Positions 1,943 to 54,726 of a stretch of DNA of 64,000 nt are shown here, in pieces. Both the position numbers and the translations under genes were made by a program. Within the stretch, counting starts at the first letter, position 1; the number at the start of each line of letters is the position of its first letter. The notes beneath the pieces were generated by a model. The model worked only from the letters and a program-made list of their open reading frames with translations, made no database searches and had not been told where the DNA came from. Source of the stretch: Rhipicephalus microplus (lineage: Eukaryota; Arthropoda; Arachnida; Ixodida; Ixodidae); assembly GCF_043290135.1 (NCBI RefSeq), contig NC_134700.1:162774053-162838052 (forward strand), given 5' to 3'.

Positions 1943-2222
1943 GAAGAGCGAATGCATTGATTGATTGATTGATTGATTTGTGGGGTTTAACGTCCCAAAA
2001 CCACCATATGATTATGAGAGACGCCGTAGTGGAGGGCTCCGGAAATTTTGACCACCTGGGGTTCTTTAACGTGCGCCCAAATCTGAGCACACGGGCCTAC
2101 AACATTTCCGCCTCCATCGGAAATGCAGCCGCCGCAGCCGGGAATCGAACCCGCGACCTGCGGGTCAGCAGCCGAGTACCTTAGCCACTAGACCACCGCG
2201 GTGGGGCTGAAGAGCGAATGCA
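1943..2222 (-). mobile_element. Ruka-type tRNA-derived SINE with 14-bp TSD
   Basis: Full-length SINE (1957-2208) in minus orientation. The tRNA-like head lies at the right with A box (tggtctagtgg on its own strand) and a B box differing by one base from the other copies (ggttcgattcc). The conserved body follows, then a (GATT)n tail at the left. It is flanked by a perfect 14-bp duplication, gaagagcgaatgca, at 1943-1956 and 2209-2222. The perfect duplication suggests a fairly recent insertion. Confidence 0.92.
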
Positions 2223-3551: not shown

Positions 3552-3816
3552 TCTATTTGGCTTCCCCCCGCCGCGGTTGTCTAGTGGCTAAGGTACTCGG
3601 CTGCTGACCCGCAGGGCGCGGGTTCGAATCCCGGCTGCGGCGGCTGCATTTCCGATGGAGGCGGAAATGTTGTAGGCCCGTGTACTCAGATTTGGGTGCA
3701 CGTTAAAGAACCCCAGGTGGTCTAAATTTCCGGAGCCCTCCACTACGGCGTCTCTCATAATCATGTAGTGGTTTTGGGACGTTAAACCCCACATATCAAT
3801 CAATCTATTTGGCTTC
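3552..3816 (+). mobile_element. Ruka SINE nested in LINE-C, 13-bp TSD
   Basis: Full-length SINE at 3565-3803 with A box, perfect B box (ggttcgaatcc) and a short (TCAA) tail. It is flanked by the perfect 13-bp duplication tctatttggcttc at 3552-3564 and 3804-3816. It interrupts LINE-C reverse transcriptase, so it is younger than LINE-C. Confidence 0.93.
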
Positions 3817-12854: not shown

Positions 12855-15316
12855 GGATCAGAATCACACATATGCCAATGATCCTCTTTCGCTCCGCGAC
12901 CGCAATTCTGGTGGCACAAATTAATGTATCAGTGACAATTCAGGTGCACACGGGGGTCAAACACACTTTCTATCGCAATATAGTTAGAACAGAGTCAATT
13001 TTCTTGATTTGATTCCGCGAGATGCAAAATACAGCGGATAGTTGTGAGGCAATTCAATCGTTATGGCAGTTTCATAGTAATCCGAAGTGCCTGTGTTACA
13101 ATCATAGTATTCATGCGTATTATCAACCGAACGATTTTAACATAAACCAGTAATATTTTTCGTTTTTTCTCCCGATGCACGTTTTTTCAATATATAAATT
13201 TTTGTCACCATTGCAGCTTCTCCCTTTGTTCCATTCTTATTGAAGCCTTTGTTTTTTATTAAAAGCAGAAAGCCCGCTGATGTCATTTCCCTTCTGCTAT
13301 TCTTTTTTAGAGCCTTTCTCATGGCATTCCGACAGTGTAGCATGCAGGGAATGATTACTATGGCGGCTATGTTACTTGAATAAAAACAATGGACCCAGTT
13401 GCATTCATCCTAAAATCTTTATGAAGTACGAAGCAGAAACGCACTTCCCCTTCAGCTTCACTCGCGTTTATGGGTCAGCAAGCACTGTTGATCTGAGCCT
13501 GGAGCCTGCTATCGGGAAATGAAAACTTCCTTTGTGATGCCGGGGCACCCTCGCCGCATTTTCTTTTTCTTTCGCCCTCCCTAATTTTCTCCTTTTCCCG
13601 GCTATGCTATACTTTAGACGGCTACGCTATGCTTTACCTCGCCCTCCTTTCTTGCAACACAATTCTATTTTCTACCCTCTCACTCCTTGCCTTCTTCGTC
13701 TCCTTCACATATTACCACCTCACCCTCACTACACTTTCCCTCGCCTTGGTGTATTCTATTATGACTGTGCAATGTTTTTATTCTCCCCTCGTCTTTCCCC
13801 ACATCTTTATTCTGGCCTCATTTTCCCGACCCTTCCTGCAAGGACAGAATTCTGGTCTGCAGTATGTTATAAAATAAAATAAAATGAAATAAAATAAATA
13901 CAACGCGTGACTATGCTGGCTAGACTAAGCTTCACCTCTTCCCTTCATCATTTTTGTTCTCCTAACCAAAACACCCTTTTTCTTTGTCCTCAATTTCCTT
14001 TCCGGCCCCCTTGCGGTGCATATTATACATTCTAAACTCTTGAGGCATCATAGTTATACATCGCTACAACATATCTTGTTTATTATGTAATACCTATACA
14101 GGGACCTTTAGGGAAAGTGAATTATGATGAGGATGATGCTAGTGATGGTGATAGTTTTGCCTGCGTGATGCGATATATGCTATGCTGAAATTTACCCTCT
14201 CCCTTTCCCATATTAGTCCTCTTCACCTTCACATCTACCGCACGATGACTGCATAGGACACGACGACTGCACACGATGACAGCATAGGACAGCGAATGCC
14301 ACTAAAGTGGTCCGCCATGAAAAGTTCTGCTGAATACTACACTCTCTGTAACACTTCAAGGTGAAAGTCTGCTGCACACTTCATGGAACACGTTCTACTA
14401 TTGTACACAAGGATTAATGCCGGTCTTAGCAAGCCGTACTGTGAGAGCCTCACATTAAATTACCTTCACGTTCTTAGCGTAATCAAACGTTTCTTTCTTC
14501 ACAATGAAGTCGCAAGGAGTGATTGTTTTCTCCCCAAATGCCTGCCAGAAGGTCAAGCTAACGGGGGTTTCGGCCTCGCTTTATAAGCCTCCCACGTTTT
14601 TCTCAATGTTCACCTCGAGAGTAGAACCTCGAAGTCCAAGTATACGTTCTCGCTTGCTGTATACAGGAAAGCGCACGAAGCTGAGACGATAGATTGCCAG
14701 TCAAACAATCTATTTTTCTTTAACTTTGTTGATAATGAAGACACCACTTTTCTTCTTTTCACAGGCCTGGTGATCTGACGGCTTATTGTCTTGTTGCCTC
14801 CAAGCAGATTCATCATCATCATAGCATCATCTCTCATAGTGTTTGTTGTGCGAGAAAATGTTTTCTTTATAAGCACGAACAAAACAAGAGCTTTTATGTT
14901 TTTATTGCGCTTGAATAAAAAGAACAGCTGTTTGTCCTAAAAATGCTGAAAGATCCCCGACCGCTTCACTCGACGTGAGAGCGGCATCAAACAAATCCTT
15001 CTTTTGTTTGGTCTCCAGAGGCTGCTTCCTCGCTTCTCTTCGTATTTCAGTGCTCAAACCTAGCCGGCACGAGGCTGCCACTCCGACAAGTCGAGTGCTA
15101 GCCTTCTTAATGCCATTCTGCTGTTTCTGGCGGCTATCCCCGAGGGCATCAAAACAGGATATCCTGCTTTTTCACTCTTACGTCAAAGAAACAATTCTAC
15201 AGCTTTCCTTACAAGAAAACAGCAGCTTTATCTATAGCTTTCGACAGCTTTCCATCTACCGCCACAGAAATATGAATGCTTTTCAGGATGAGAACCAAGA
15301 AATCGCTTTTTCCGAA
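12855..15316. other. No gene recognised; pyrimidine-rich low-complexity patches
   Basis: The 13,560-13,880 and 14,180-14,240 stretches are strongly C/T-rich and include an (AAAATAAAAT)-like end near 13,870-13,900. Open frames there (13,604-13,882) are driven by composition. I see no domain in the remainder. Confidence 0.45.
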
Positions 15317-15404
<88 letters not shown>

Positions 15405-15546
15405 CATCTATCCATCTATCCATCTATCCATCTATCCATCTATCCATCTATCCATCTATCCATCTATCCATCTATCCATCTATCCATCTATCCATCTATC
15501 CATCTATCCATCTATCCATCTATCCATCTATCTATCTATCTATCTA

Positions 15547-15636
<90 letters not shown>
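15317..15636. repeat. Four-phase compound microsatellite
   Basis: About 320 bp of tetranucleotide-derived repeat in ordered blocks: (TATC)n at 15,317-15,399, an octamer (TCCATCTA)n at about 15,400-15,525, (TATC)n again to about 15,549, then (TGTC)n to 15,636. The two 160-230 codon plus-strand open frames across it (LSIYLSIY and CLSVCLSV) are repeat artefacts. Confidence 0.95.
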
Positions 15637-21623: not shown

Positions 21624-21895
21624 CCTTCTCACCGTTGATTGATTGATTGATATGTGGGGTTTAACGTCCCAAAAACACTATATGATTACGAGAGACGCCG
21701 TAGTGATGGGCTCCGGAAATTTAGACCACCTGGGGTTCTTTAACGTGCACCCAAATCTGAGCACACGGGCCTACAACATTTCCGCCTCCATCGGAAATGC
21801 AGCCGCCGCAGCCGGGATTCGAACCCGCGCCCTGCGGGTCAGCAGCCGAGTACCTTAGCCACTAGACCACCGCGGCGGGGCCCTTCTCACCGTTG
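21624..21895 (-). mobile_element. Ruka SINE, full length, 14-bp TSD
   Basis: Element 21,638-21,881 in minus orientation, with an intact tRNA-like head (right), body and GATT tail (left). The perfect duplication ccttctcaccgttg lies at 21,624-21,637 and 21,882-21,895. The 71-codon open frame inside it recurs in other Ruka copies and only reflects SINE sequence. Confidence 0.93.
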
Positions 21896-29317: not shown

Positions 29318-29593
29318 TAGTCAAAACATCGCCCCACCGCGGTGGTCTAGTGGCTAAGGTACTCGGCTGCTGACCCGCAGGTCGCGGGTTCAAATCCCGG
29401 CTGCGGCGGCTGCATTTCCGATGGAGGCGGAAATGTCGAGGCCCGTGTGCTCAGATTTGGGTGCACGTTAAAGAATTCCAGGTGGTCAAAATTTCCGGAG
29501 CCCCCCACTACGGCGTCTCTCATAATCATATAGTGGTTTTGGGACGTTAAACCCCACAAATCAACCAATCAATCAATCATAGTCATAACATCG
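29318..29593 (+). mobile_element. Ruka SINE, full length, 14-bp TSD (one mismatch)
   Basis: Element 29,332-29,579 with intact A box and a near-perfect B box (ggttcaaatcc). The tail is (ATCA)n. Flanks tagtcaaaacatcg (29,318-29,331) and tagtcataacatcg (29,580-29,593) differ at one base. Confidence 0.92.
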
Positions 29594-36803: not shown

Positions 36804-37017
36804 GGAGACATTCCCAAGTGGGAGGAAGAACCGAGAGAACAGTATCAAGAAGTGATAGCCAAACCCGGAGGTCGAAATAGAAGCTGTGACATGAATGATA
36901 AGATTGAAGATGATGAACGCGTCGCTGTCACGGAACCACTGAGGAAGCCGGCAAATGAAGAACCCGCTTACAGTTTGTCCACCAGCAACGATGGCTTGTT
37001 TGATCTCCTCCGTGGTG
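36804..37017 (+). pseudogene. 5' part of an ORF interrupted by LINE-A copy 1
   Basis: An open plus-strand frame after a TGA at 36,801 is hydrophilic and acidic (DMNDKIEDDERVAVTEP, then NDGLFDLLRG). The LINE-A target duplication falls exactly at DLLRG, and the same residues restart in the same frame on the far side at 43,063. I infer one pre-existing reading frame split by the insertion. I do not recognise the protein; a gag-like or host origin are both possible. Confidence 0.4.
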
Positions 37018-37282
37018 CCCGCAGGGGCGCCTGTGAAAGCAGGCGTTTGGTGTGTAGCGACACCATAGACCCGAGCTAACGGGGGAGTTTCTACTCCCTC
37101 CCACGCCTAGCCGTGCGTGGCTTTGCCGTGTCCGGGAAAAGGGGATCCTGGGGGTTGAGCCGACGCTAGGTGATTGGACCGTTAAGGCCCCCGGCAGAGG
37201 CAACACACCCCTTTGGCCCCGGCTTCACGTAGACGGCACCCCTGGGCTGACCCACCCAGGGGAAATCGGCAGTCGCCTTTTC
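37018..37282 (+). promoter_or_regulatory. LINE-A copy 1 structured 5' leader
   Basis: GC-rich leader almost identical to that of copy 2: 8 substitutions and 2 single-base indels over about 265 aligned bases. Stem sequences of the predicted hairpins are unchanged. Observed differences lie in a loop (tgcaag to tgaaag), in linkers and in the more 3' part. Full-length LINEs carry their promoter in this region. Confidence 0.6.
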
Positions 37283-37543
37283 CTATCTCTCTCTCCCTAC
37301 ATCTTCGTCTTTATCTTTTACTATTTATCTGTCCTGTCTTCTACTCTCTTCCGTTTACTTCCAAACTTCCTGGCGGCTAGGGTTAACCCTGTGCAAATAG
37401 CCTACCTTGGTCTAGGCGCATTGGGTTATAGTGGCGTTGTACGGCTGGCGTCTGCAGGTTTCAGCATCCGTAAACTTGCAGCGTCCCCTCGTTGGGCTCC
37501 GTGGTGGGTGGCCGCCAACGCTGCTGAACAACATACAATTAGC

Positions 37544-38714
37544 ATGCACAAAGCATTCCCTTTACTCAGTGATCGTGCCTCCTCAAAGCGGGTACGCACC
37601 AAAGATATCAATTTTTTTCGTCCGGCCAAGACAAACCTTTCCTCATTTCCACGTTATACACTGCGAAAAAACTAACAAGCAAGCCAGAACAGTATCCCCC
37701 TTCGTAGTGGCTAGGTCCTTAACCGAAACTCTCGGTGCCGGGTACAAGGTTACCAAAATGGCCAGTGGAGATCTACTCCTTGAAATACGTGACTGACCAA
37801 TTCGATAAACTGAACACCCTCACAACGTTTGGAGACACACCCATCAGTATTACGCCACACAGGTCCATGAACTCATCTCGCGGGATCGGACGCAGATTTG
37901 CTTGACCTGACCGAAGCTGAACTTTTTGAAGGATGGAAGAGTCAGAACGTGACAAACGTACAGCGTATTAAGATTAGAAGAGATCAAAAGGAAATACCAA
38001 CAAAACACTTAGTACTGACCTTTGCTTCGAGCGATTTGCCGGAAACAATCCAGACTGGGTATACAAAGACATCTGTGAGGCCATATATTCCCAACCACCG
38101 CCGTTGCTTCCAATGTCAGAGATATGGCCACGGCTCGCAAAGCTGTCGTGGCCGGAAAACTTGTGCTCTGTGTGGAGTCGTGGGCCATGCGTCCGACAAC
38201 TGCGAAGCACCTGCACACTGTGTGAACTGTGGCGGTAATCATGCCGCGTACTCACGTTCCTGTTCTTTCTGGAAAAAAGAAAAAGAGATCATCACTTTAA
38301 AGATAAAAGAAAACATTACATTTAAAGAAGCAAGAAAAAAAGTCTCGCCATTTTATGGCCCCACATATGGCGAGGGCTGGAGCAGTGTCGCACCAGCCCT
38401 CGCCACTCCTTCGGCCTGCGCAGAGCGAGCCATTGGCTGTGGCGCCTGCCCCCAAGGCAGCAGTAGTTGAGTCTACTCCGCCTACTATTGAACAGAGACC
38501 AGGGACTCCAGGGTCCTCGGGTCTCAAGGCCTCACCTCGCCAGGCGAGGCCCAAGCTTCGAAAAACCAGCTCGCATGAGCGGGCATCCAGTGCCTCCGAG
38601 GAGGCAATGAATACGGCGGCACCCCTGGTGCCAAAAGAGCGGCGCGGCTCTCTGGAGCGCGCCAAGAAAACTAAAAAGCTCATAACAGGGCCTGATAATA
38701 GCCCTATTACTTGA
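37544..38714 (+). pseudogene. LINE-A copy 1 ORF1 (frameshifted gag-like protein)
   Basis: Corresponds to copy 2 ORF1 but is spread over at least four frames, with breaks near 37,640, 37,795, 37,900 and 38,450. The best piece (37,898-38,470) keeps DLTEAELFEGW and three CCHC knuckles: CFQCQRYGHGSQSC, CALCGVVGHASDNC and CVNCGGNHAAYSRSC. The proline/serine-rich C-terminus continues in another frame to the stop at 38,714. ORF1 proteins of this type bind the LINE RNA; this one cannot be made intact. Confidence 0.85.
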
Positions 38715-38779
38715 GCTCGACCTTTCAGCTGAAACAAGTCACTCCCTTAACGTACACACAGCACTACTTTACTTCCAAT

Positions 38780-41700
38780 ACGGAAACACAAATTATACAT
38801 TGGAACGTCAGAGGTCTGCTTAAAAACCTCGACGACGTCCAAGAGCTTTTATACAAATACTCACCTCAAGTGCTGTGTGTACAGGAAACACACCTAAAAT
38901 CCTCTAATACAAATTTTTTACGTGCTTACGTCATATACCGAAAGGACCGAGATGATGCTGTGGCGTCATCCGGTGGCGTAGCCATTATTATTAACCAAGG
39001 AGTAGCGTGTACACATTTACCACTCCAGACATCCCTTGAGGCGGTGGCTGTTCGAGCGGTACTTTTAAACAAACTCGTCACCATCTGCTCTTTGTATGTA
39101 CCTCCCCACCACGTCTTGAAAGACGTGAATTCCAGTCCTTAATAGACGAACTGCCTGAACCTTATTTGCTTCTTGGGGACCTAAATGCACATAGTGGACT
39201 GTGGGGCGATTCTCGCTCTGATGCACGAGTTCGTCTCATTGAACAATTTCTCTTCTCTTCCGGTGTCTGTTTGTTGAATAGGAAAGAGCCAACATACAAT
39301 AACGATGCCAACAAAACTTACTCGTCTATATACCTCAGCATTGTATCACCTTCACTCCTACCCCTACTGAAATGGAAAATCATAAATAATCTATATGGAA
39401 GTGACCATTTTCCTGTAGTGTTGACTTCACAAACAACATATGAATGTCCTCTACATGTTCCCAAATGGCTGATAAACAAAGCAGACTGGGAACAGTTCCA
39501 CAACACTACACGTTTGAGTTGGACAGACATATGTAGGTTAAACATAGATGAAGCTGTGCAGTATTTCACAGCTTTTCTAACTGACGCAGCAGCCAGGTGC
39601 ATACCGCAAACATCTGGAATGCCCGGCAAACGACACGTCCCATGGTGGAACACAGAGTGTCGTAATGCGCGAAAGGAACAGAACAGGGCATGGAGATTGC
39701 TTCGTAACTCACCAACAGCCGAAAATCTTGACACCTTCAAGAAAATAAAGTCTCAAGGAAGGAGAACGCGTCGGCAGGCCAGAAGAGAAAGCTGGCAGAA
39801 GTTTTTGTCAGGGATCAATTCGTACACACAGGAGGCTAAAGTTTGGAACATGGTCGGTAGGATAGCAGGGAAACAAGTACACACACTTCCACTCGTAAAC
39901 ACTCAAGGTGATACCTTGGAAGATCAGGCAAACTTCCTCGGGGCACATTTTGAACGGGTATCCAGCTCGTCCCACTATACTGACACTTTCCAAAAATACA
40001 GAACAAGAATAGAAAAGCAGAAACTAGAACACAAATCCACTAGATAAGAGGCATATAACCAAGCTTTCAGTCTAGCTGAGCTCCGAACATCTCTAAACTC
40101 CTGCAGTACTTCTGCCCCAGGTTCTGATCGTGTGGTGTATGAAATGTTAAAAAACCTACCAGCCGAAACACGAAAAACCTTACTTTGTTTGTACAATGCT
40201 ATCTGGTTTTCTGACACTATCCCTACCTCCTGGAAAGAGGCTATTATTATTTCCATTTTGAAAAAGGGCAAGGACCCTTCTTTAGCTTCAAGTTATAGGC
40301 CTATTGCACTTACAAGCTGCTTGTGCAAAGTATTCGAAAAAATGATAAACTGCCGAGTTGTACATATTCTTGAAACAAACAATTTGCTCGAGCCATTTCA
40401 GTGCGGGTTTCGAGAAAGTAGATCCACCCCAGACCACCTTGTTCGTATCGAGGCACAGATCAGAGACGCCTTCGTCCATAAACAATATTTTCTCTCTGTG
40501 TTCCTCGATATCGAAAAGGCTTATGATACAACATGGCGTTTCGGAATGCTAAGAGACTTGTCCCACCTTGGTGTGCGCGGAAGAATGTTTAATATAATCT
40601 AAAGTGACCTGTCAAACCGGACATTCCGTGTCCGTCTGGGCAGTGTGCTCTCCCAAACATTTGTCCAGGAAACAGGCGTGCCACAAGGTGGTGTGCTTAA
40701 TTGCACACTTTTTATTATCAAAATGAATTCTTTGCACTTGTCCATTCCCCGCAATATGTTCTATTGTACATATGTCGACGACGTGCAGCTTGGCTTCAAG
40801 TCATGCAACTTGGCCATGTGTGAGCGGCAGGTTCAGCTGGGTTTAAATAAGGTCTCCAAATGGGCAGTTGAAAACGGATTTCGGCTTAACCCACAAAAAA
40901 GCACCTGTGTCTTGTTCTCTCGAAAGAGAGGCATGCACTCGGAACCTGATATTCGACTGAACAGGCAACGCCTGTCCGTCAAAGCTGAGCATAAATTCTT
41001 AGGCTTAATCTTAGACAACAAGTTGACCTTCGTACCGCACATCAAGTACCTAAAAACAAAATGTTTAAAAGCCATGAATGTTATAAAAGTGTTGTCACGT
41101 ACTACTTGAGGTAGTGATAGGCAATGCCTCATGAATCTGTATCGAAGCCTCATTCGCACCCGCTTAGATTATGGGGCCGTTGTTTATCACTATGCAACTC
41201 AAAGTGCTTTGAAGATGCTGGACCCCGTGCACCATTTGGGCATTCGCCTTTCTACGGGTGCTTTTCGCACCAGCGCTGTAGAAAGCCTTTACGTTGAGTC
41301 AAATGAATGGTCGCTTCATTTACAGAGAACTTACATGTCCTTTGTATATTTTCTTAAGATGAAAGCAGACAAGAAGCACCCCTCGTACTCTACTAATAAT
41401 GATCTGTCGAGCTCCATTCTGTTTCAAAACAGGCCTTCGGTGAGGCAGCCCTTCTCAGTTCCCCTTAAGTGTCTAGCTGAAGAAACTGAAGTCTCAATTG
41501 AACACAGTTTAATGGCTCCTGTAGCATACCCGCCACCGTGGCAGTGGCAGACTATAGACTGCGATGTGTCTTTCCTAGAAGTTACAAAACATGCACCTAT
41601 TGCCCATATCCGAACATACTTTCTGGAACTTCAACACAAATACACACGTCCTGAGTTCTTCACAGATGCCTCCAAGACTAACTCCTCTGTGTCCTACGCT

Positions 41701-42498
41701 GCTGTCGGCCCATCCTTTTCGGATGCTGGCCCTCTACATCCAGGCACAACTATCTGCACAGCGGAAGCTTACGAGATACTTGTGGCAGCTAAACACATCA
41801 AACAATTACAAATACAAAAAGCAGTAATTTATACAGACTCCCTCAGTGTGGTAACGGCTCTGCACAGTCTTAAAAAACAAAAAAATCCGGTCCTTGTCTC
41901 ACTTCACTCCATTTTGTGCACACTCTACACACTCAAACAACATGTTGTAGTGTGCTGGGTGCCAGGGCACCGTGAGATCCAAGGCAATGTGAGGGCGGAT
42001 CAGCTCGCTGCATCCGTCCACGAAAGCACTGCCCCTACACCTATATTAATCCCGGCCCTTGATCTTAAGCCGTCTCTCAAACGAAACCTCAAGGACTACT
42101 GGCAGAGCAAGTGGGATACACACACACAAAACAAACTACACGTTTTCAAGCCACACCTTGGCCATTGGCCACCAGTATCAAAATCACGTCTAACAGAGGT
42201 AACACTAACAAGACTCAGGATAGGACACACATACACGACACACACACATCTTTTGTCCAGTGGTGATCCACCATTGTGTGATAAATGTGGTGAGGCATTA
42301 ACAGTTCTTCACGTTTTATTTCAATGTAAGCAGTTAGATGCTCTAAGAAGACAACACTTTCCATTACCCTACCGACAACATATACTTTTACACCCTGCAA
42401 TGTTCGTTGGTAGGGAACCGCTTTTTAGTCATAAATCATTGTTAGCGTTTTTAAAGGAAATTCATAATTTTCATATCATATACCCGGTCATACCGTAG
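38780..42498 (+). pseudogene. LINE-A copy 1 ORF2 (EN-RT-RNase H, inactivated)
   Basis: Aligns along its length with intact ORF2 of copy 2. Domains in order: endonuclease (HWNVRG, QETHLK, GDLNAH, GSDHFP), RT (FLDIEKAYD, GVPQGG, YVDD at about 40,771), RNase H (FTDASK, TAEAYE, YTDSLSVV, CWVPGH) and a C-terminal CDKCGEALTVLHVLFQC knuckle. Lesions: the start codon is ACG at 38,780; a frameshift lies near 39,125-39,165; an EN catalytic Asp is Tyr (SSIYLS, about 39,325); stops at 40,045 (TAA), 40,600 (Lys to TAA) and 41,107 (Trp to TGA). RNase H and the C-terminus remain open in one 455-codon frame (41,131-42,498). Confidence 0.92.
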
Positions 42499-42641
42499 CA
42501 CGACCTCTCTAGAGAGGTTTTTGCTGCGGTGGCTACACAGGAAAGCACTTGCCTCACGGCCCTTGGACGCAAGGGTATGAACGAGTGAGGTGCTTGTGCT
42601 AATGCCATACATGTCCACCACCGTTTTTCATTATCACTAAC

Positions 42642-43062
42642 TTTTGTCACCTATTCACACCACACACACCTTTCACAGCATGGTCATGATTTTATTACTT
42701 GTATGTTTTACCTGCCTTATTGCGAGGAATTTTATGGCCCTTATACAGCCGCTAATCACAATCATTGTCCACATTCTTTGTCCCATGAACTGGCGCTCTT
42801 TGGCCATCAAATGGCCCTTGCGCCAAAAAACATCATATATCATCATCAACTTTGTTCATCTATTCGCACTACACACACCTTTCACGGCACGGTCATGATT
42901 TTATTACTTGTATGTTTTTACTCGCCTTACCGCGAGGAATTTTATGGCCCTTATAAAGCCGTTTATCGCAATCATTTTCCACATCTTTTGTCCCATGAAC
43001 TGGCGCTCTTTGGCCATCAAATGGCCCTTGCGCCAAAAAACACTAATATCATCATCATCATC
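42642..43062 (+). repeat. Tandemly duplicated LINE-A 3' UTR and ATC tail
   Basis: Two copies of a 209-bp unit (about 42,642-42,850 and 42,851-43,062). Each carries a ttcac-gca-ggtcatgattt block, tgcgaggaat or cgcgaggaat, ctggcgctctttggcc and cccttgcgcca, and each ends in ATC repeats. Both units lie inside the target duplications. Copy 2 has a single 3' UTR with the same final boxes. Confidence 0.9.
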
Positions 43063-43415
43063 ATCTCCTGCGTGGTGAAGCCGGCAGTCCTGCGTTTCCT
43101 GTGGTGCCCCCGTCATTGTTTGCCAAGGGTGGACGTCAAAACTTTGTTTTGCTCAGCTTCGAGGAATTGGACAATGTCGTGACAAAACAAGGAGATGGTC
43201 GCCTAGAAACACAAGTGAGAACCTTGCTTCTGCCTCTGAAAGTGAATTGGAGGGTCCTGGAAAAGGAGCTGCAGCAGAACCACCACGCGAACCAACCGCA
43301 TAAGCATATTCCTCCGGAGCAGCGGGAAACAAACTACCGGGTTTGGGCCACAGCAAGAAACATCGCTGCAGGAATCAAGGCACCTCATGGAGAATACTCC
43401 AAAATGCTGCAGTAA
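43063..43415 (+). pseudogene. 3' part of the ORF interrupted by LINE-A copy 1
   Basis: Resumes in the frame of 36,804-37,017 at LLRG and stays open for about 116 codons to TAA at 43,413. It contains PPSLFAKGGRQNFVLLSFEE, then NVVTKQGDGRLETQV and ARNIAAGIKAPHGEYSKML. Composition (few stops, balanced residues) looks coding, but I recognise no domain. The downstream sequence to about 43,870 includes purine-rich and CCACGGGTCC words that could be an LTR-like end, so a retroelement gag origin remains possible. Confidence 0.4.
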
Positions 43416-45417: not shown

Positions 45418-45678
45418 CTGTTTTGGTCATCACCCCGCCGCGGTGGTCTAGTGGTAAGGTACTCGTCTGCTGACCCGCAGGTCGCGGGATCGAATTCCGG
45501 CTGCGGCGGCTGCATTTCTGATGGAGGCAAAAATGTTGTAGGCCCGTGTGTTCAGATTTGGGTGTACGTTAGAGAATTCCAGGTGCTCGAAATCTCCGGA
45601 GTCCTCCGCTATGGCGTATTTCATGAGCATATGGTGGTTTTGGGACGTTAAACTCCACATGTCAATCTGTTTTGGTCA
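45418..45678 (+). mobile_element. Ruka SINE, full length, 12-bp TSD
   Basis: Element 45,430-45,666 is more diverged than the other full-length copies (one base missing in the A-box region, B box gggatcgaattcc). The perfect 12-bp duplication ctgttttggtca lies at 45,418-45,429 and 45,667-45,678. Confidence 0.9.
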
Positions 45679-46157
45679 CTATTTTAAATATAAAAAGAAA
45701 CAGAATCTTTAAGCAAGCTCGTACATGAACGCCAGCGTCTATGTTTGTTTATAGCAAGAATTTTTTTTGTGAAATGTAAGTAAAGGAGTCCTGTAACACT
45801 TATTGAGCAGGGTCCGAAAACACCGCCGCTTGGTAGCAGAGGCTTCCAAGAACACGTGAGCGAACTATTATAGCGCAGCACGCGGCCAGGTATTCAGAAA
45901 AATTGTCAAAGACAGCTGAAAAATATTTTCCCTTCTTTCGACAAATGACGGAACACGCTCAAAAATTACTCGTAGAAGGCTTTCTATCAGCAATTTGCAG
46001 CGGGCTCGGTCATTACAGGGATCGCCGCGGGAGGCCGAAACATCTCCACGCGTGCGCGTGCGATCACACTGGCACAACCATTTATTCGAAGAAAAAAAAG
46101 AAAAAAGTGTTAGAGGTTAGCAGGCGTGCACGGCGTATTTTGTTTGCCCCTGTCATG
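45679..46157. other. No gene recognised
   Basis: Unique-looking flank of LINE-A copy 2; the poly-purine word near 46,085-46,108 is low complexity. Confidence 0.45.
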
Positions 46158-46169
46158 CCTCCCTGCTTT

Positions 46170-46434
46170 CCCCGCAGGGGCGCCTGTGCAAGCAGGCGTT
46201 TGGTGTGTAGCGACACCACGGACCCGAGCTAACGGGGGAGTTTCTACTCCCTCCCACGCCTAGCCGTGCGTGGCTTTGCCGTGTCCGGGGAAAAGGGGAT
46301 CCTGGGGGTTGAGCCGACGCTGGGTGATTGGACTTTTAAGGCCCCCCGGCAGAGGTAACACACCCCTTTGGCCCCGGCTTCACGTAGACGGCACCCCTGG
46401 GCTGACCCACCCAGGGGAAATCGGTAGTCGCCTT
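46170..46434 (+). promoter_or_regulatory. LINE-A copy 2 structured 5' leader (hairpin array)
   Basis: Consecutive short stem-loops can be read directly: cgcctg/caggcg (46,181-198, 6-nt loop), tggtgt/acacca (46,201-218, 6-nt loop), cccg/cggg (46,223-236, 6-nt loop), gggag/ctccc (46,236-251, 6-nt loop), ccacgc/gcgtgg (46,254-273, 8-nt loop) and cccctggg/cccagggg (46,394-417, 8-nt loop). The first bases (cccc-gca-gggg) can also fold. LINE promoters normally lie here; a ribozyme or translation element is possible but unproven. Confidence 0.6.
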
Positions 46435-46699
46435 TTCCTATTTCTCTCTCTCTATATATCTTAGTCTTTTCTCGTCTTTAAATCTATCCTGTCTTCTTCT
46501 CTCTTCCATTTACTTCCGATTTTTCCTGGCGGCAAGGGTTAACCCTGTGTGGCTATCCTACCTTGGATACACCATATTCGGTTATAGTGGTGGCGTACAG
46601 CTGGCGTCTGCGGGGCCTGTACTTACAGACCCTCCAGCGTCCCCTTGTAGGACTCCATGGTGGGTGGCTGGCGCCGCTGCCGAAAGTAAGCATTTACAT

Positions 46700-47887
46700 A
46701 TGGCTTGTTCCTTCCCCCCACTCCCTGATCGCCCTCAGAAAAGAGGGCGCACCGATGAAGTTTTCCAGTTTTTTGGTAACCAGAAAGTATCTTTTCCCCG
46801 ATTTCATGTTATTCACGCTGACACACCCGGTAAATCAGTGCGAACACTTTCACCTTTTCTAGTATCAAAGTCTTTGACGGAAATCTTTGGCCCAGGATAT
46901 AAAGCTTCGAGAATGGCAAGTGGTGACCTCCTGTTGGAGCTCCGCTACCAGAAACAATATGAAAAATTGCCTAACCTTGTGAAATTCGGAGATAACAAAT
47001 TAATAGTAACCCCACACAGAACCATGAACACCACCCGTGGCGTTGTCTCAGATGATGACCTGTTAGGGCTGACAGAGGCTGAACTCCTGGAGGGTTTCAG
47101 CGAACAGAATGTCATAAACGTAAAACGAATCAGCATGAGGCGTGATGGCAAAGAAGTCCACACTAAACACCTGATACTTACCTTCAATTCAAGTGTACTG
47201 CCCGACTCCGTTGAGGCTGGGTATATCAAGCTTCGAGTTAGGCCATATATACCAAACCCCCTCCGATGTTTTAAATGCCAACGATTCGGCCACAGTTCAC
47301 AGAAATGCCGAGGCCGCCTAACTTGCGCGAAATGCAGTGCTGAAGAGCACACATCAGATGCCTGTGAAAACTCTCTTCACTGTGCGAACTGTAATGGGGA
47401 ACATGCCGCATACTCGCGGTCATGCCCGTGCTGGAAAAAGGAAAAGGAAATTGTCACAATTAAGGTAAAACAAAATATTTCATTTAAGGAGGCACGAAGG
47501 CAGGTGTCCTGCCTACCAGAAACTAGCTTTGCCGAAGTGGCGCGTCAGGGGGCAGCGCCACGACGGCCCCTGGCGCCTGTCTGGCACACGCGTAGTGAGC
47601 CAGCGGTGACGCCATTCGCCCCCTCGGCGGTTGCAGCCAGTGCTGCTCCGCCATCTAAGAAAGACCCACCAACCTCTGGGCTGGGGGCCCCGAAGGTCTC
47701 GTCTTTTGAGGCGAGGCCCTCAAAACAAATGCAGCGCTCGCAAGAGCGCCTGTCCAGCGCCTCGCAAGAGGCAATGGACACAACACCGAGCGTGAGGGCG
47801 CAGTCAGCGCCTAAGGATCGGCGCGACTCCGTCGACCGATCTAAAAAAGAAAAATCTCGTGTCATGGCCCCTGGAAAGGGTCCGTGA
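46700..47887 (+). CDS. LINE-A ORF1, gag-like nucleic-acid-binding protein (395 aa)
   Basis: I chose the ATG at 46,700; the frame is open upstream but has no earlier ATG, and copy 1 has an ATG close to the same place. An RRM/PRE-like region (about residues 30-185, including LSPFLVSKSLTEIFGPGY and LTEAELLEGF) precedes three CCHC zinc knuckles: CFKCQRFGHSSQKC (190-203), CAKCSAEEHTSDAC (209-222) and CANCNGEHAAYSRSC (228-242). A basic WKKEKEI follows, then a Pro/Ser/Ala-rich, probably disordered C-terminus rich in Arg, Lys and Ser. In I and Jockey elements such proteins coat the element RNA and form ribonucleoprotein particles. ORF2 starts 42 bases after its stop in another frame, which implies re-initiation or another unconventional mode of ORF2 translation. 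Confidence 0.92.
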   Translation: MACSFPPLPDRPQKRGRTDEVFQFFGNQKVSFPRFHVIHADTPGKSVRTLSPFLVSKSLTEIFGPGYKASRMASGDLLLELRYQKQYEKLPNLVKFGDNKLIVTPHRTMNTTRGVVSDDDLLGLTEAELLEGFSEQNVINVKRISMRRDGKEVHTKHLILTFNSSVLPDSVEAGYIKLRVRPYIPNPLRCFKCQRFGHSSQKCRGRLTCAKCSAEEHTSDACENSLHCANCNGEHAAYSRSCPCWKKEKEIVTIKVKQNISFKEARRQVSCLPETSFAEVARQGAAPRRPLAPVWHTRSEPAVTPFAPSAVAASAAPPSKKDPPTSGLGAPKVSSFEARPSKQMQRSQERLSSASQEAMDTTPSVRAQSAPKDRRDSVDRSKKEKSRVMAPGKGP

Positions 47888-47929
47888 GCTAACATTCCAT
47901 CCTTGAACACACAGCACAAAACATCTAAA

Positions 47930-50900
47930 ATGGATACACAGATCTTACAGTGGAATGTGAGAGGACTTCTCCATAACCTGGATGATATTAGAGAACTTCT
48001 TAATAAACATACTCCAAAGGTGCTGTGTGTTCAGGAGACACATCTCAAGTCCACACAAACAAACTTTCTAAAGCATTATGCCATCTTCCGCAAAGACCGT
48101 GACGACGCTGCTGTTTCGTCAGGCGGTGTCGCTATAGTAGTTGATAAAGGTGTTGCCTGTAAGCAATTAAACCTCCGAACTTCTCTTGAGGCAGTTGCTG
48201 TCCGAGCAGTGCTGTTCGGGAAGCTACTAACAATTACCTCTATTTACATTCCCCCGTGCTATCAACTTTCAAAGACACAATTTCAAAGCTTCATTGATGA
48301 ACTTCCTCCGCCATATATAGTCGTTGGTGATCTAAATGCACATAATCCCCTTTGGGGCGACTCCCGTTTAGATGCACGAGGACGCCTAATAGAACACTTT
48401 CTGTTTTCGTCAGGTGCATGTCTACTAAACAAAAAAGAACCAACGTATTATAGCACTGCACATAACACATACTCTTCTATTGACCTGAGTATTGTCTCGA
48501 GTGCTATAATTCCATACCTGGAGTGGTTCGTTCTCAAGAACCCTTTTGGGAGTGACCACTTCCCGATTATGTTAAAGTTAACAAAAGAAGATACACGCTC
48601 GCCTGACTTTCCTCGCTGGAACACCAATTCAGCCAACTGGGAATTATTTCGAGAAATTACATTTTTAGACGGAGATGAGATTGCTGATTTTAATATAGAC
48701 AATGCTGTAGCATACCTAACAAGTTTTATTATTGACGCTGCAGTGAAATGTATCAAGCAGACCAACGGAATGACCAATAAACGTCGCATCCCATGGTGGA
48801 ACGACGATTGTCGGAAAGCACGCAATAGACAAAATAAAGCTTGGAGACTACTCCGAAATTACCCGACGGCTGAAAACCTCAACAATTTCAAACAGGTTAA
48901 GTCCCAAGCCAGAAGAACGCGTCGTCTTGCAAAGAAAGAAAGTTGGAATAGGTACATCTCCGGCATAAACTCTTACACCGATGAAACGAAGGTTTGGAAT
49001 AGGGTAAAGAAGTTAATGGGTCGGGAGTCACACCCCCTACCCTTGGTAAGTAGCCAAGGGGAGAGCCTGGAGGAGCAGGCAGACTGCCTAGGCGAACACT
49101 TTGAATGCGTCTCGAGTGCATCGCACTACACAGAAACGTTCTTAAGATTCAAAGAACGCGAAGAGCGGCAACCCCTTAATACTAAACGTCCCTCCAGGGA
49201 GGCTTACAACTGCCCATTTTCATTAGCCGAACTTAAGGCATCTCTTGCGTACTGCAACAACTCGGCGCCAGGTGGCGATCGTATAACGTACGAAATGATC
49301 AAGTACCTTCACCCAGAAGCACTAAAAACGCTCCTAACCCTCTTCAATACCATGTGGGAAGCTGGATATATTCCATTGTCATGGAAAGAAGCGATAGTCA
49401 TCCCGGTACTTAAACAAGGCAAAGACCCATCCTTGGCCGCCAGCTACAGGCCAATAGCGTTAACAAGCTGTTTGTGCAAACTATATGAGAAAATGTTAAA
49501 CCGGCGCTTAACCCACTTCCTAGAAAGTAACAGTATACTAGACCCCCTTCAGTGTGGTTTCAGAGAGGGGAGGTCGACAACAGACCACCTTGTTCGCATA
49601 GAGACATACATCAGAGATGCATTTATTCATAGGCAGTTTGTACTTTCAGTATTCTTAGACCTGGAGAAAGCGTACGATACCACATGGCGATTCGGGATTC
49701 TACGCGATCTTGCCGCCATGGGCATCCATGGGAACATGCTCAGCACAATTAAAAGTTATCTGTCTAACAGAACCTTTCGCGTAAAAGTGGGAAATGCTCT
49801 CTCTAGATCATTTACCCAAGAGACTGGTGTTCCGCAAGGGGGCGTGCTTAGTTGCACACTCTTTCTTGTAAAAATGAACTCCCTGCAGTCAGTCATTCCA
49901 AGTACGATGTTTTATTCGGTGTATGTTGATGATGTGCAGATGAGTTTCAAATCGTGCAATATGTCTATCTGCGAACGACAAGTGCAGCTTGGAATGAATA
50001 AATTCTCTAAATGGGCGGATGAGAATGGTTTTAAAATAAACACCGAGAAAAGTACTTGCGTACTCTTCTCCAACAAACGAGGGGTAATGCCACTTCCAAA
50101 TATTACGATCAAGGGAGACCAACTCTCTGTGAGAAGCGAGCATAAATTCCTAGGAACTACTTTAGATTCTAAGCTCACGTTTATTCCCCATATTAAACAT
50201 GTAAAAATGAAATGTCTGAAAGCGATGAACCTCCTAAAGCTCCTATCACGTACAACATGGGGTAGTGATCGAAAGTGCCTCTTGAAGTTATACAAAAGCC
50301 TTGTCGGGTCGCGCCTTGATTATGCCTCTATAATTTATCATTCCGCAACGCCAAGTGCATTAAAAATCCTAGACCCCGTTCACCATTTGGGTATCCGACT
50401 TGCAACCGGTGCTTTCAGGACAAGCCCGATCCAGAGCCTCTATGTAGAGTCGAATCAGTGGTCACTTCACCTGCAGCGATCCTACAGCAGTTTCACATAT
50501 TTTATAAAGGTGCGTGCAAACATCAAGCATCCATCTTATTCAACTATAAACGATACGACCGCTGCCACCCTCTTCCATAATCGACCCACAGTGAGAAAGC
50601 CGTTCTCCTTGCGTGTGAGAAACCTATGTGAGGAAATGGGTGTTCCGCTGCTGGAACTCTGTCCTACGCCCACAGCGATATTTTTACCGCCGTGGCAGTG
50701 GCAGCTTATACACTGTGACACCTCATTTGTTGAGATCACTAAACATGCACCAGAAGCACATATCAAAATGCATTTCCGAGAACTCCAGTCCAACTACTCA
50801 TGCGTAGAGTTTTATACTGACGCTTCTAAGTCGCATGCAGGGGTGGCTTATGCAGCCGTCGGACCATCCTTCTCGGAATCCGGCGTGCTGCACCCGGAAA

Positions 50901-51700
50901 CAAGTATATTTACGGCTGAGGGTTATGCATTATTGTCCGCTGTGAAGCATATACGGAAATCAAACATACGAAAATCAATTATATTCACAGACTCGTTAAG
51001 CGTCGTAAATGCATTAAGATCCCTTTTCAGATTCAGAAATCCGATAATAATTGAGCTATATTCCGTTCTGTGTACAGCGTATATGTCCAACCAGCATGTC
51101 ACTATTTGCTGGGTACCTGGCCATAGAAGTATCGAGGGCAATGTGTTAGCTGACCAAATGGCCACGTCAATTATAATGCGCGCTATTAACCCCACCGCTA
51201 CTGTCCCTGCAACAGATTTAAAACCCTTTCTACGAAAGAAACTGCGAAACCACTGGCAACGCTTGTGGGACACAGAAATAAATAATAAGCTTCATTTGAT
51301 TAAGCCGCGGTTGGGTTACTGGTCCTCCGCTACAAGAACACGGCGAACTGATGTCCTATTCTGTCGCCTCAGAATAGGACACACTTATGGTACTCATAAC
51401 TTTCTTTTGACGGGCGATGAGCCTCCTACTTGTGGTAGATGTGGTGAGAGGCTAACCGTCCTCCACGTCCTCCTGGAGTGTCCGGAAGCTGAAAGTGAGA
51501 GAAAGAAATACTTTGGTTTAGCATACCGCTATCATCTTCCCCTACATCCTATTATGTTCCTCGGCGAAGAGCCGCTTTTCGATGCAAAATCTGTTTTAAG
51601 CTTTTTAAAGGATGTAGTATTGAATGTTTTTAGCCCAACATTGAATGTTTTAGCCAAACAGGTTCATAGCGCATCCTCTGTCCAGAGGATACCGCTGTGA
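47930..51700 (+). CDS. LINE-A ORF2: endonuclease, reverse transcriptase, RNase H (1,256 aa)
   Basis: Start ATG at 47,930; an upstream in-frame extension begins with TTG and is unlikely to be used. The APE-type endonuclease (about 1-215) has QWNVRG, QETHLK, GDLNAH, SSIDLS and GSDHFPI, all catalytic residues kept. RT (about 480-760) has LTSCLCKLYEKM, FLDLEKAYDTTW (motif A), GVPQGGVLSC (motif B), YVDD (about 664) and FLGTTLD. RNase H (about 955-1,080) shows FYTDASK, TAEGYA, FTDSLSVV and CWVPGHRSIEGNVLADQ, the full D-E-D-H/D set. A CGRCGERLTVLHVLLEC knuckle lies near 1,167. The enzyme nicks DNA, primes cDNA synthesis on the nick and may remove the RNA strand. Size and domain order fit the I group. 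Confidence 0.95.
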   Translation: MDTQILQWNVRGLLHNLDDIRELLNKHTPKVLCVQETHLKSTQTNFLKHYAIFRKDRDDAAVSSGGVAIVVDKGVACKQLNLRTSLEAVAVRAVLFGKLLTITSIYIPPCYQLSKTQFQSFIDELPPPYIVVGDLNAHNPLWGDSRLDARGRLIEHFLFSSGACLLNKKEPTYYSTAHNTYSSIDLSIVSSAIIPYLEWFVLKNPFGSDHFPIMLKLTKEDTRSPDFPRWNTNSANWELFREITFLDGDEIADFNIDNAVAYLTSFIIDAAVKCIKQTNGMTNKRRIPWWNDDCRKARNRQNKAWRLLRNYPTAENLNNFKQVKSQARRTRRLAKKESWNRYISGINSYTDETKVWNRVKKLMGRESHPLPLVSSQGESLEEQADCLGEHFECVSSASHYTETFLRFKEREERQPLNTKRPSREAYNCPFSLAELKASLAYCNNSAPGGDRITYEMIKYLHPEALKTLLTLFNTMWEAGYIPLSWKEAIVIPVLKQGKDPSLAASYRPIALTSCLCKLYEKMLNRRLTHFLESNSILDPLQCGFREGRSTTDHLVRIETYIRDAFIHRQFVLSVFLDLEKAYDTTWRFGILRDLAAMGIHGNMLSTIKSYLSNRTFRVKVGNALSRSFTQETGVPQGGVLSCTLFLVKMNSLQSVIPSTMFYSVYVDDVQMSFKSCNMSICERQVQLGMNKFSKWADENGFKINTEKSTCVLFSNKRGVMPLPNITIKGDQLSVRSEHKFLGTTLDSKLTFIPHIKHVKMKCLKAMNLLKLLSRTTWGSDRKCLLKLYKSLVGSRLDYASIIYHSATPSALKILDPVHHLGIRLATGAFRTSPIQSLYVESNQWSLHLQRSYSSFTYFIKVRANIKHPSYSTINDTTAATLFHNRPTVRKPFSLRVRNLCEEMGVPLLELCPTPTAIFLPPWQWQLIHCDTSFVEITKHAPEAHIKMHFRELQSNYSCVEFYTDASKSHAGVAYAAVGPSFSESGVLHPETSIFTAEGYALLSAVKHIRKSNIRKSIIFTDSLSVVNALRSLFRFRNPIIIELYSVLCTAYMSNQHVTICWVPGHRSIEGNVLADQMATSIIMRAINPTATVPATDLKPFLRKKLRNHWQRLWDTEINNKLHLIKPRLGYWSSATRTRRTDVLFCRLRIGHTYGTHNFLLTGDEPPTCGRCGERLTVLHVLLECPEAESERKKYFGLAYRYHLPLHPIMFLGEEPLFDAKSVLSFLKDVVLNVFSPTLNVLAKQVHSASSVQRIPL

Positions 51701-52031
51701 TAGCAGCCTTTAATGAGCCCAGGCCTCCATGCTCTTGTTTTAAGGGTTCTGTCGAGGCACTGGTGCTCCATCCCAAGTTTTTATTTCACATACATATCAC
51801 TTTTAAACCATTTTATGTTTCCATAGCACACATCAATTGTCATTGCCATAATCTTACTATATATATATATATATATTTTACGCACCTACAGCGACTGTTT
51901 TTTAGGCCCATTTACAGCCACATCATATCTCTTTTATCTACACTGCACATCGTACAATTCATTATCATCGTTCTGGCGCTCTTTGGCCACATCTGGCCCT
52001 TGCGCCAATAAACTCCACTAATCATCATCAA
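51701..52031 (+). repeat. LINE-A copy 2 3' UTR and tail
   Basis: Single-copy 3' UTR with a (TA) run at about 51,860-51,877, then the boxes ctggcgctctttggcc and cccttgcgcca that also end copy 1, an aataaa word at 52,007, and an ATC-repeat tail meeting the TSD. Confidence 0.85.
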
Positions 52032-52042
52032 CCTCCCTGCTT

Positions 52043-54480: not shown

Positions 54481-54503
54481 GCTAGCTAAAATTCGTATGC
54501 GGC

Positions 54504-54726
<223 letters not shown>

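What the first reader, a model, noticed from the sequence alone, without database searches (positions are those of the whole stretch)
46170..46434. Consecutive-hairpin 5' leader in LINE-A, a candidate structured RNA element
The leader reads as a chain of short GC stems, most with 6- or 8-nt loops: 46,181-198, 46,201-218, 46,223-236, 46,236-251, 46,254-273 and 46,394-417, plus a cccc/gggg stem at the very start. In copy 1 the stems are unchanged, while some differences fall in a loop or in linkers. Known 5' elements of LINEs include promoters and, in R2 and L1Tc/ingi-type elements, HDV-like ribozymes. I could not thread an HDV-like double pseudoknot by eye, so ribozyme activity is only a hypothesis; a packaging or translation signal is equally possible.
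Basis: partly seen in the sequence, partly recalled or inferred. Interest (0 to 1): 0.75.

Follow-up and report, generated by a model that had tools for sequence, protein, structure and literature searches.

The report
Shared hairpin-rich leader of tick retrotransposons
The first 270 letters of a tick jumping gene really do contain a row of tight RNA hairpins, and two jumping-gene lineages whose protein genes have drifted far apart carry almost the same leader, probably because it was recently passed between them or because it is under unusually strong constraint; no self-cutting ribozyme was found.

Summary
The hairpin array is real, but only partly as described. Four perfect 6-bp hairpins lie in the first 107 nt (0 of 1000 shuffles, both copies) and an 8-bp one at 46394-46417. 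The cccc/gggg and 46223-236 stems have little support. Target-site duplications place the leader at the exact 5' end of a full-length LINE, 46169-52031, and of a second copy from 37018. ORF2 has endonuclease, RT and RNase H.

The main finding lies elsewhere. The leader is 260/270 identical between the copies, while their proteins are 59.6% identical and 293 of 413 fourfold sites differ. Identity falls abruptly at 46439-46455. Leader divergence (3%) matches the decay that premature stops imply for copy 1 (3.3%), so the source leaders were probably nearly identical. I favour recent exchange of a functional 5' module by template switching; extreme constraint is a close rival.

No HDV-like ribozyme is supported: no Rfam match at E<=10, anchored threading no better than chance and absent in copy 1. 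No pair covaries. Two copies cannot settle the cause; the own-genome search did not complete.

The parts
46158..46168 (.). Left target-site duplication of copy 2 (right one 52032-52042)
   Evidence: 11-nt exact match
46169..46440 (+). Leader of copy 2: 5'-terminal part of the LINE's 5' UTR
   Evidence: 260 of 270 columns identical to copy 1 over 46171-46440, 8 substitutions, 2 one-base indels; change point 46439-46455
46181..46198 (+). Hairpin H1, 6 WC bp (7 with U-G)
   Evidence: its one difference between the copies is in the loop (GCAA to GAAA in the 7-bp reading)
46201..46218 (+). Hairpin H2, 6 bp
46236..46251 (+). Hairpin H4, 6 bp, 4-nt loop
46254..46273 (+). Hairpin H5, 6 bp, 8-nt loop
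   Evidence: pair probability 0.00 in copy 1 with the longest context
46394..46417 (+). Hairpin H6, 8 bp, 8-nt loop
   Evidence: opened in the two-sequence consensus fold
46441..46699 (+). Rest of the 5' UTR: variable pyrimidine-rich stretch, then moderately conserved sequence
   Evidence: 175 matches, 83 substitutions, 1 gap against copy 1; 46451-46480 17 of 30 differ, 46481-46540 9 of 60
46631..46691 (+). Non-coding block conserved at nucleotide level
   Evidence: matched by N-terminal extensions of ORF1 homologues in three reading frames
46700..47887 (+). ORF1 with CCHC motifs
   Evidence: uninterrupted ORF; in 24 of the 60 homologue rows printed (of 120 proteins) residue 1 aligns to this ATG; CCHC motifs read from the sequence, no Pfam match
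47903..51700 (+). ORF2: endonuclease, reverse transcriptase, RNase H (first ATG 47930)
   Evidence: Pfam
37018..37286 (+). Leader of copy 1
   Evidence: starts right after its own duplication 37003-37017
37287..43062 (+). Rest of copy 1, interrupted ORFs, 3' end before the right duplication 43063-43077
   Evidence: duplication 14 of 15 nt; 4 stops in the ORF2 match plus frame breaks between matches

Best explanation
The feature is the 5'-terminal head of a full-length LINE of I-factor-like organisation: the first ~270 nt of its RNA, GC-rich, with a cluster of strong hairpins, followed by a pyrimidine-rich stretch and the rest of a ~530-nt 5' UTR. Shown: the element's ends, the hairpins of the first 107 nt, near-identity of the leader between two lineages with near-saturated fourfold sites, and one abrupt edge. 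Inferred: the leader is a functional module (internal promoter and/or RNA structure needed for a productive full-length RNA), and one lineage recently obtained it from the other, or both from a third, by reverse-transcriptase template switching during target-primed reverse transcription; RT coming from the 3' end may pause at the structured leader (H6 lies 22-38 nt beyond the edge) and resume on another LINE RNA. ORF1 is probably reached by scanning from the capped end, as upstream ATGs are scarce. No self-cleavage is needed.
For: Leader 260/270 identical against 175 of 258 gap-free columns in the rest of the UTR, 59.6% amino-acid identity (941 of 1580) and 293 of 413 fourfold sites different. 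Single change point 46439-46455. Leader divergence 3% equals the decay implied by 4 stops in copy 1 (3.3%), so the source leaders were nearly identical. Loops and linkers are nearly as frozen as stems, which structure alone would not require. The copies sit in different, well-supported ORF1 groups, copy 1 beside a Rhipicephalus protein, copy 2 among Dermacentor proteins. Promoter replacement is called frequent in LINEs (PMC2881922, passages) and template switching is discussed for LINE-1 5' chimeras (PMC13174262, passages). Upstream ATGs: 1 against 4.5-6.3 expected in copy 2, 0 against 3.8-6.2 in copy 1.
Against: Only two copies; no donor and no third leader seen. The rest of the 5' UTR is also more alike than fourfold sites, and a block of it is conserved widely, so strong constraint on the leader is possible without exchange. 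The edge coincides with a variable pyrimidine-rich stretch, where constraint could simply end. H6, the proposed pause site, is opened in the consensus fold. No promoter activity is shown, and no initiator or DPE was found at the expected places (consensus motifs recalled).
Confidence: 0.5

Rival explanations
1. Extreme constraint: both lineages inherited the leader from their common ancestor and selection kept nearly every base, as a 5'-terminal RNA structure and/or promoter.
For: Hairpins in the first 107 nt above chance in both copies; sense-strand stability; 0 of 8 substitutions in stems (P = 0.063); the H1 loop change keeps a GNRA loop in the 7-bp reading; the rest of the 5' UTR is also conserved at nucleotide level, one block across ticks and a scorpion protein's N-terminus.
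Against: It needs near-zero change in ~190 non-stem positions while fourfold sites differ at 71%. No compensatory change. The second part of the leader (46276-46440) does not fold better than shuffles.
Confidence: 0.35
2. An HDV-like self-cleaving ribozyme at the 5' end that releases the element's RNA from a longer transcript.
For: The element's first six bases are complementary to 46286-46291; copy 1 keeps CCCG/CGGG with both the C run and the G run one shorter; five anchored threadings exist in copy 2; an unanchored threading in copy 2 scored as high in only 1 of 60 shuffles. R2 ribozymes in arthropods, with a structure reported earlier for the Ixodes scapularis R2, are known (PMC3774820, passages and sections).
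Against: 38 of 200 shuffles also thread; copy 1 gives no threading (32 of 200 of its shuffles do). The anchored threadings need a mismatched P2 and most use P2' inside H6. The unanchored threading uses the target-site duplication 46158-46168 as P1. The 5'-end pairing has probability 0.0 in a nested ensemble (pseudoknots not modelled). No HDV family in Rfam at E<=10. No positive control was run for the descriptors.
Confidence: 0.04
3. The leader derives from a host RNA (for example an rRNA spacer or an unknown structured RNA) captured separately by the two lineages.
For: GC-rich, partly structured sequence with a sharp edge; LINE-1 forms 5' chimeras with structured RNAs (PMC13174262, passages).
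Against: No Rfam match in the leader at gathering level or near a gathering score at E<=10. Both copies begin at the same base (within 2 nt) and lose identity at the same place, which separate captures would not predict. Tick rRNA spacers could not be compared.
Confidence: 0.05

Closest known systems
Drosophila I factor and I-type LINEs
   Same: ORF1 with CCHC motifs, ORF2 with endonuclease, RT and RNase H (PMC2881922 passages), 5' UTR before ORF1, short tandem repeat at the 3' end (here ATC units, read), target-site duplications
   Different: Hairpin-rich GC-rich 5' head; no initiator or DPE at the expected place. Clade membership was not tested by an RT tree.
Promoter / 5' UTR replacement and 5' template switching in LINE-1
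   Same: A 5' module behaves independently of the coding part (inferred here)
   Different: Here the 5' modules are alike and the coding parts are not; no donor was seen and both lineages share an alignable 5' UTR downstream of the edge
HDV-like ribozymes of R2 and L1Tc/ingi elements
   Same: Position: structured RNA at the exact 5' end of a LINE
   Different: No double-pseudoknot fold above chance, none in copy 1, no Rfam match

Membership tests
HDV-like self-cleaving ribozyme | P1 of 6-7 bp starting at the cleavage site, here the element's first nucleotide | tested here: inconclusive
   Copy 2: TCCCCG/CGGGGA, 46169-46174 with 46286-46291; copy 1 only CCCG/CGGG, 4 bp (copy 1 read)
HDV-like self-cleaving ribozyme | Double pseudoknot (P1, P2, P3, P1.1) with catalytic C in J4/2 | tested here: not met
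   5 threadings in copy 2, 0 in copy 1, at least one in 38 and 32 of 200 shuffles; no positive control run
HDV-like self-cleaving ribozyme | Match to a known family model | tested here: not met
   No HDV-type family among the 5 matches at E<=10 for 46100-46600
HDV-like self-cleaving ribozyme | Self-cleavage at the 5' junction | not testable with these tools
   needs a transcript assay
I-type LINE | ORF2 with endonuclease, RT and RNase H | tested here: met
   Pfam Exo_endo_phos, RVT_1, RNase_H above cut-off
I-type LINE | ORF1 with CCHC zinc knuckles | tested here: met
   Three CCHC-like motifs read from the ORF1 translation; Pfam gave no match at E<=0.001
I-type LINE | Position in the RT phylogeny | not tested
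   only an ORF1 tree was made
Jockey/I-type internal promoter | Initiator at +1 and DPE at about +28 | tested here: not met
   no TCAKTY in 46150-46250, no RGWYV at +28 for +1 = 46169-46172 (consensus recalled)
Conserved structured RNA element | Compensatory changes across copies | tested here: inconclusive
   0 of 90 pairs with a two-sided change, two sequences only
5' module exchanged by template switching | Leader tree in conflict with ORF trees | not testable with these tools
   only two leaders reachable; own-genome search unanswered
5' module exchanged by template switching | Abrupt single change of identity | tested here: met
   change point 46439-46455 within 2 lnL units; also compatible with constraint

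The most novel reading that the evidence does not exclude
A new 5'-terminal structured RNA element of arachnid I-type LINEs, held almost base by base for longer than it takes synonymous sites to saturate, which licenses the element's RNA for expression, translation or packaging and which lineages keep or trade as a module.
Probability: 0.22. Interest if true: 0.7.

Novelty: new variant of a known kind. Interest (0 to 1): 0.42.

Why it matters
If exchanged, this is a clear case of a LINE 5' module moving between lineages whose proteins are only 60% identical, and it offers a test of whether RNA hairpins promote RT template switching. If constrained, it is an unusually conserved non-coding element of a LINE. 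The two readings make opposite, easily checked predictions for leader trees across tick genomes.

Tried and rejected
HDV-like ribozyme: Rfam, unanchored and anchored threading; rejected as told above, including the copy-2 threading that beat 59 of 60 shuffles but uses target-site DNA. Hammerhead: by eye the H6 neighbourhood holds CUGA and GAAA but not the full core (motif recalled); no Rfam match. tRNA or known RNA in the leader: none. Non-AUG N-terminal extension of ORF1: rejected because the upstream block is matched in three frames and 24 of the 60 printed homologue rows begin at ATG 46700. More copies: two leader patterns and an ORF2 search in viral contigs found nothing; genome contigs gave one Burkholderiales contig matching 24 of 25 nt, taken as chance. 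A minus-strand frame of copy 1's leader as protein query found no candidate. In the window the leader has these two copies only. Kissing loops: 4-nt UAGC/GCUA complement between the H2 and H5 loops and the 46223-236 loop, seen by eye; too short to count. Papers: searches; no listing returned named a tick LINE leader in its title or shown abstract start; I claim no more about what is in print. Seen of each paper: PMC3774820 abstract, passages and sections 12, 15, 16; PMC4908430 abstract and Results; PMC13174262 passages; PMC2881922 passages; the rest listings only.

Full report
What was checked. Perfect Watson-Crick hairpins of at least 5 bp with loops of 3-8 nt in 46169-46440 lie at 46181-46198, 46201-46218, 46236-46251, 46254-46273 and 46394-46417. 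Four of them, with 6-bp stems, lie in the first 107 nt; 0 of 1000 dinucleotide shuffles reached four, in copy 2 and in copy 1. The remainder, 46276-46440, has one, which is not unusual. With shorter stems (>=4 bp) the excess shrinks (6 and 44 of 1000 for the first part) and vanishes for the whole leader (437 and 632 of 1000). Folding energies: z -2.35 (copy 2) and -3.11 (copy 1) for the first ~105 nt on the sense strand, -1.61 and -1.90 on the antisense strand, -0.60 and -0.67 for the rest; the whole leader is only z -1.57 and -1.81 (copy 1). Pair probabilities support these five stems except in copy 1 with the longest context (H2 0.63, H5 0.00), and give little support to the cccc/gggg stem and 46223-46236. 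The two-sequence consensus fold keeps H1, H2, H4 and H5 but opens H6.

What carries it. Copy 2 is a full-length LINE. An 11-bp target-site duplication lies at 46158-46168 and 52032-52042, so the element spans 46169-52031. Copy 1 begins at 37018, directly after 37003-37017, which reappears at 43063-43077, right after the ATC-repeat tail, with one mismatch (a competing 9-nt exact match at 43101 was also listed). Both copies start at CCCGCAGGGG; copy 2 has two more bases (TC) in front. ORF1 starts at ATG 46700: in 24 of the 60 homologue rows printed (of 120 proteins) residue 1 aligns there. ORF2 carries endonuclease, RT and RNase H domains. Named relatives in the list of 120 are mostly ticks and spiders (967 proteins passed, 120 listed), so a tick host is likely; this is inference.

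The unexpected part. From 46171 to 46440 the copies share 260 columns, with 8 substitutions and 2 one-base indels. From 46441 to 46699 they share 175, with 83 substitutions and 1 gap. In the ORFs 941 of 1580 compared residues are identical, and 293 of 413 fourfold sites (counted where the first two codon bases agree) differ, 71%, close to the 75% of random bases. One change point lies at 46439-46455 within 2 lnL units, best 46451. A tree of a 154-aa ORF1 stretch has 84 rows: the two copies and 82 of the 120 listed homologues, those with at least 130 residues aligned to copy 2 that I had labelled by species or that are numbered up to P0080. It puts copy 1 beside a Rhipicephalus microplus protein (100/94) and copy 2 beside the unnamed P0001 (100/99) in an 11-row group (100/100) whose five labelled members are Dermacentor. 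The two lineages are therefore distinct and probably old.

Reading it. Four premature stops in copy 1's ORF2 match imply about 3.3% decay since insertion (a small count), the same as the leader's 3%. The leaders of the two source elements were thus probably almost identical. Two readings remain. Exchange: one lineage acquired the leader recently, with an edge 22-38 nt 3' of H6, where an RT coming from the 3' end could pause and switch. Constraint: selection kept nearly every base. Against constraint on structure alone, loops and linkers are nearly as frozen as stems (0 of 8 substitutions in 78 stem positions, P = 0.063) and 0 of 90 predicted pairs show a two-sided change. For constraint, 46481-46540 differs at only 9 of 60, and the block 46631-46691 is matched by N-terminal extensions of homologues in three reading frames. 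Of the 120 N-termini, 10 match the copy-2 stretch at E<=0.01: P0001, P0003, P0048 in frame 3; P0035, P0044, P0060 (Haemaphysalis longicornis), P0097 (Centruroides) and P0021 in frame 2; P0028 in frames 2 and 1; and P0120 outside the block. With copy 1, 11 match, P0026 in the third frame. So the block is conserved as nucleotides, not as protein. I lean to exchange of a functional module, about 0.5 against 0.35 for constraint; the pausing step is the weakest, since H6 opens in the consensus fold.

Ribozyme. HDV-like ribozymes cleave at the first nucleotide of P1 (PMC4908430, abstract and Results); R2 ribozymes typically have a P1 of 6 or 7 bp (PMC3774820, section 16). The element's first six bases are complementary to 46286-46291, and the C and G runs are both one shorter in copy 1: the best hint for such a P1. 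But the anchored descriptor threads copy 2 only with a mismatched P2, 38 of 200 shuffles also thread, and copy 1 does not. The unanchored threading that beat 59 of 60 shuffles uses target-site DNA for P1. Rfam gives no such family at E<=10. No positive control was run.

Translation and promoter. The 5' UTR holds 1 upstream ATG in copy 2 (expected 4.5-6.3) and 0 in copy 1 (expected 3.8-6.2), which favours scanning over internal entry; the copies are not independent. No initiator or +28 DPE is present by recalled consensus.

Limits. Two sequences only. The own-genome search was unanswered 15 of 15 times, so copy number, other leaders and covariation could not be examined. The hairpin statistics are for a region chosen after looking.

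Noticed in passing
window 46631-46691: 5' UTR block just upstream of ORF1 matched by N-terminal extensions of homologues in three reading frames, including Haemaphysalis and a Centruroides protein: a nucleotide-level conserved block.
   Followed up: partly
window 46535-46546 and 37379-37390: Perfect 12-nt palindrome AGGGTTAACCCT, present in the 5' UTR of both copies and nowhere else in the window.
   Followed up: no
window 51973-52009, 42790, 43000: Stem-loop near the LINE 3' end, conserved in copy 1, where it occurs twice; a likely RT recognition site (inference).
   Followed up: partly
window 42630-43042: Tandem duplication, about 210 bp apart, of copy 1's 3' end (families D9 and D12).
   Followed up: no
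window 46700-51700: Copy 2 has two uninterrupted ORFs and a perfect target-site duplication, so it looks young and may be intact.
   Followed up: no
window 2128-2203, 3569-3644, 21802-21877, 29335-29410, 45437-45508: tRNA-like sequences, four called tRNA-Ser(gct), at the heads of a repeat family of ~200-250 nt: a tRNA-derived SINE; the tick SINE name Ruka is recalled.
   Followed up: no
window 15222-15629 and 54501-54603: Tandem repeat with an 8-nt step, with an inverted counterpart 39 kb away.
   Followed up: no
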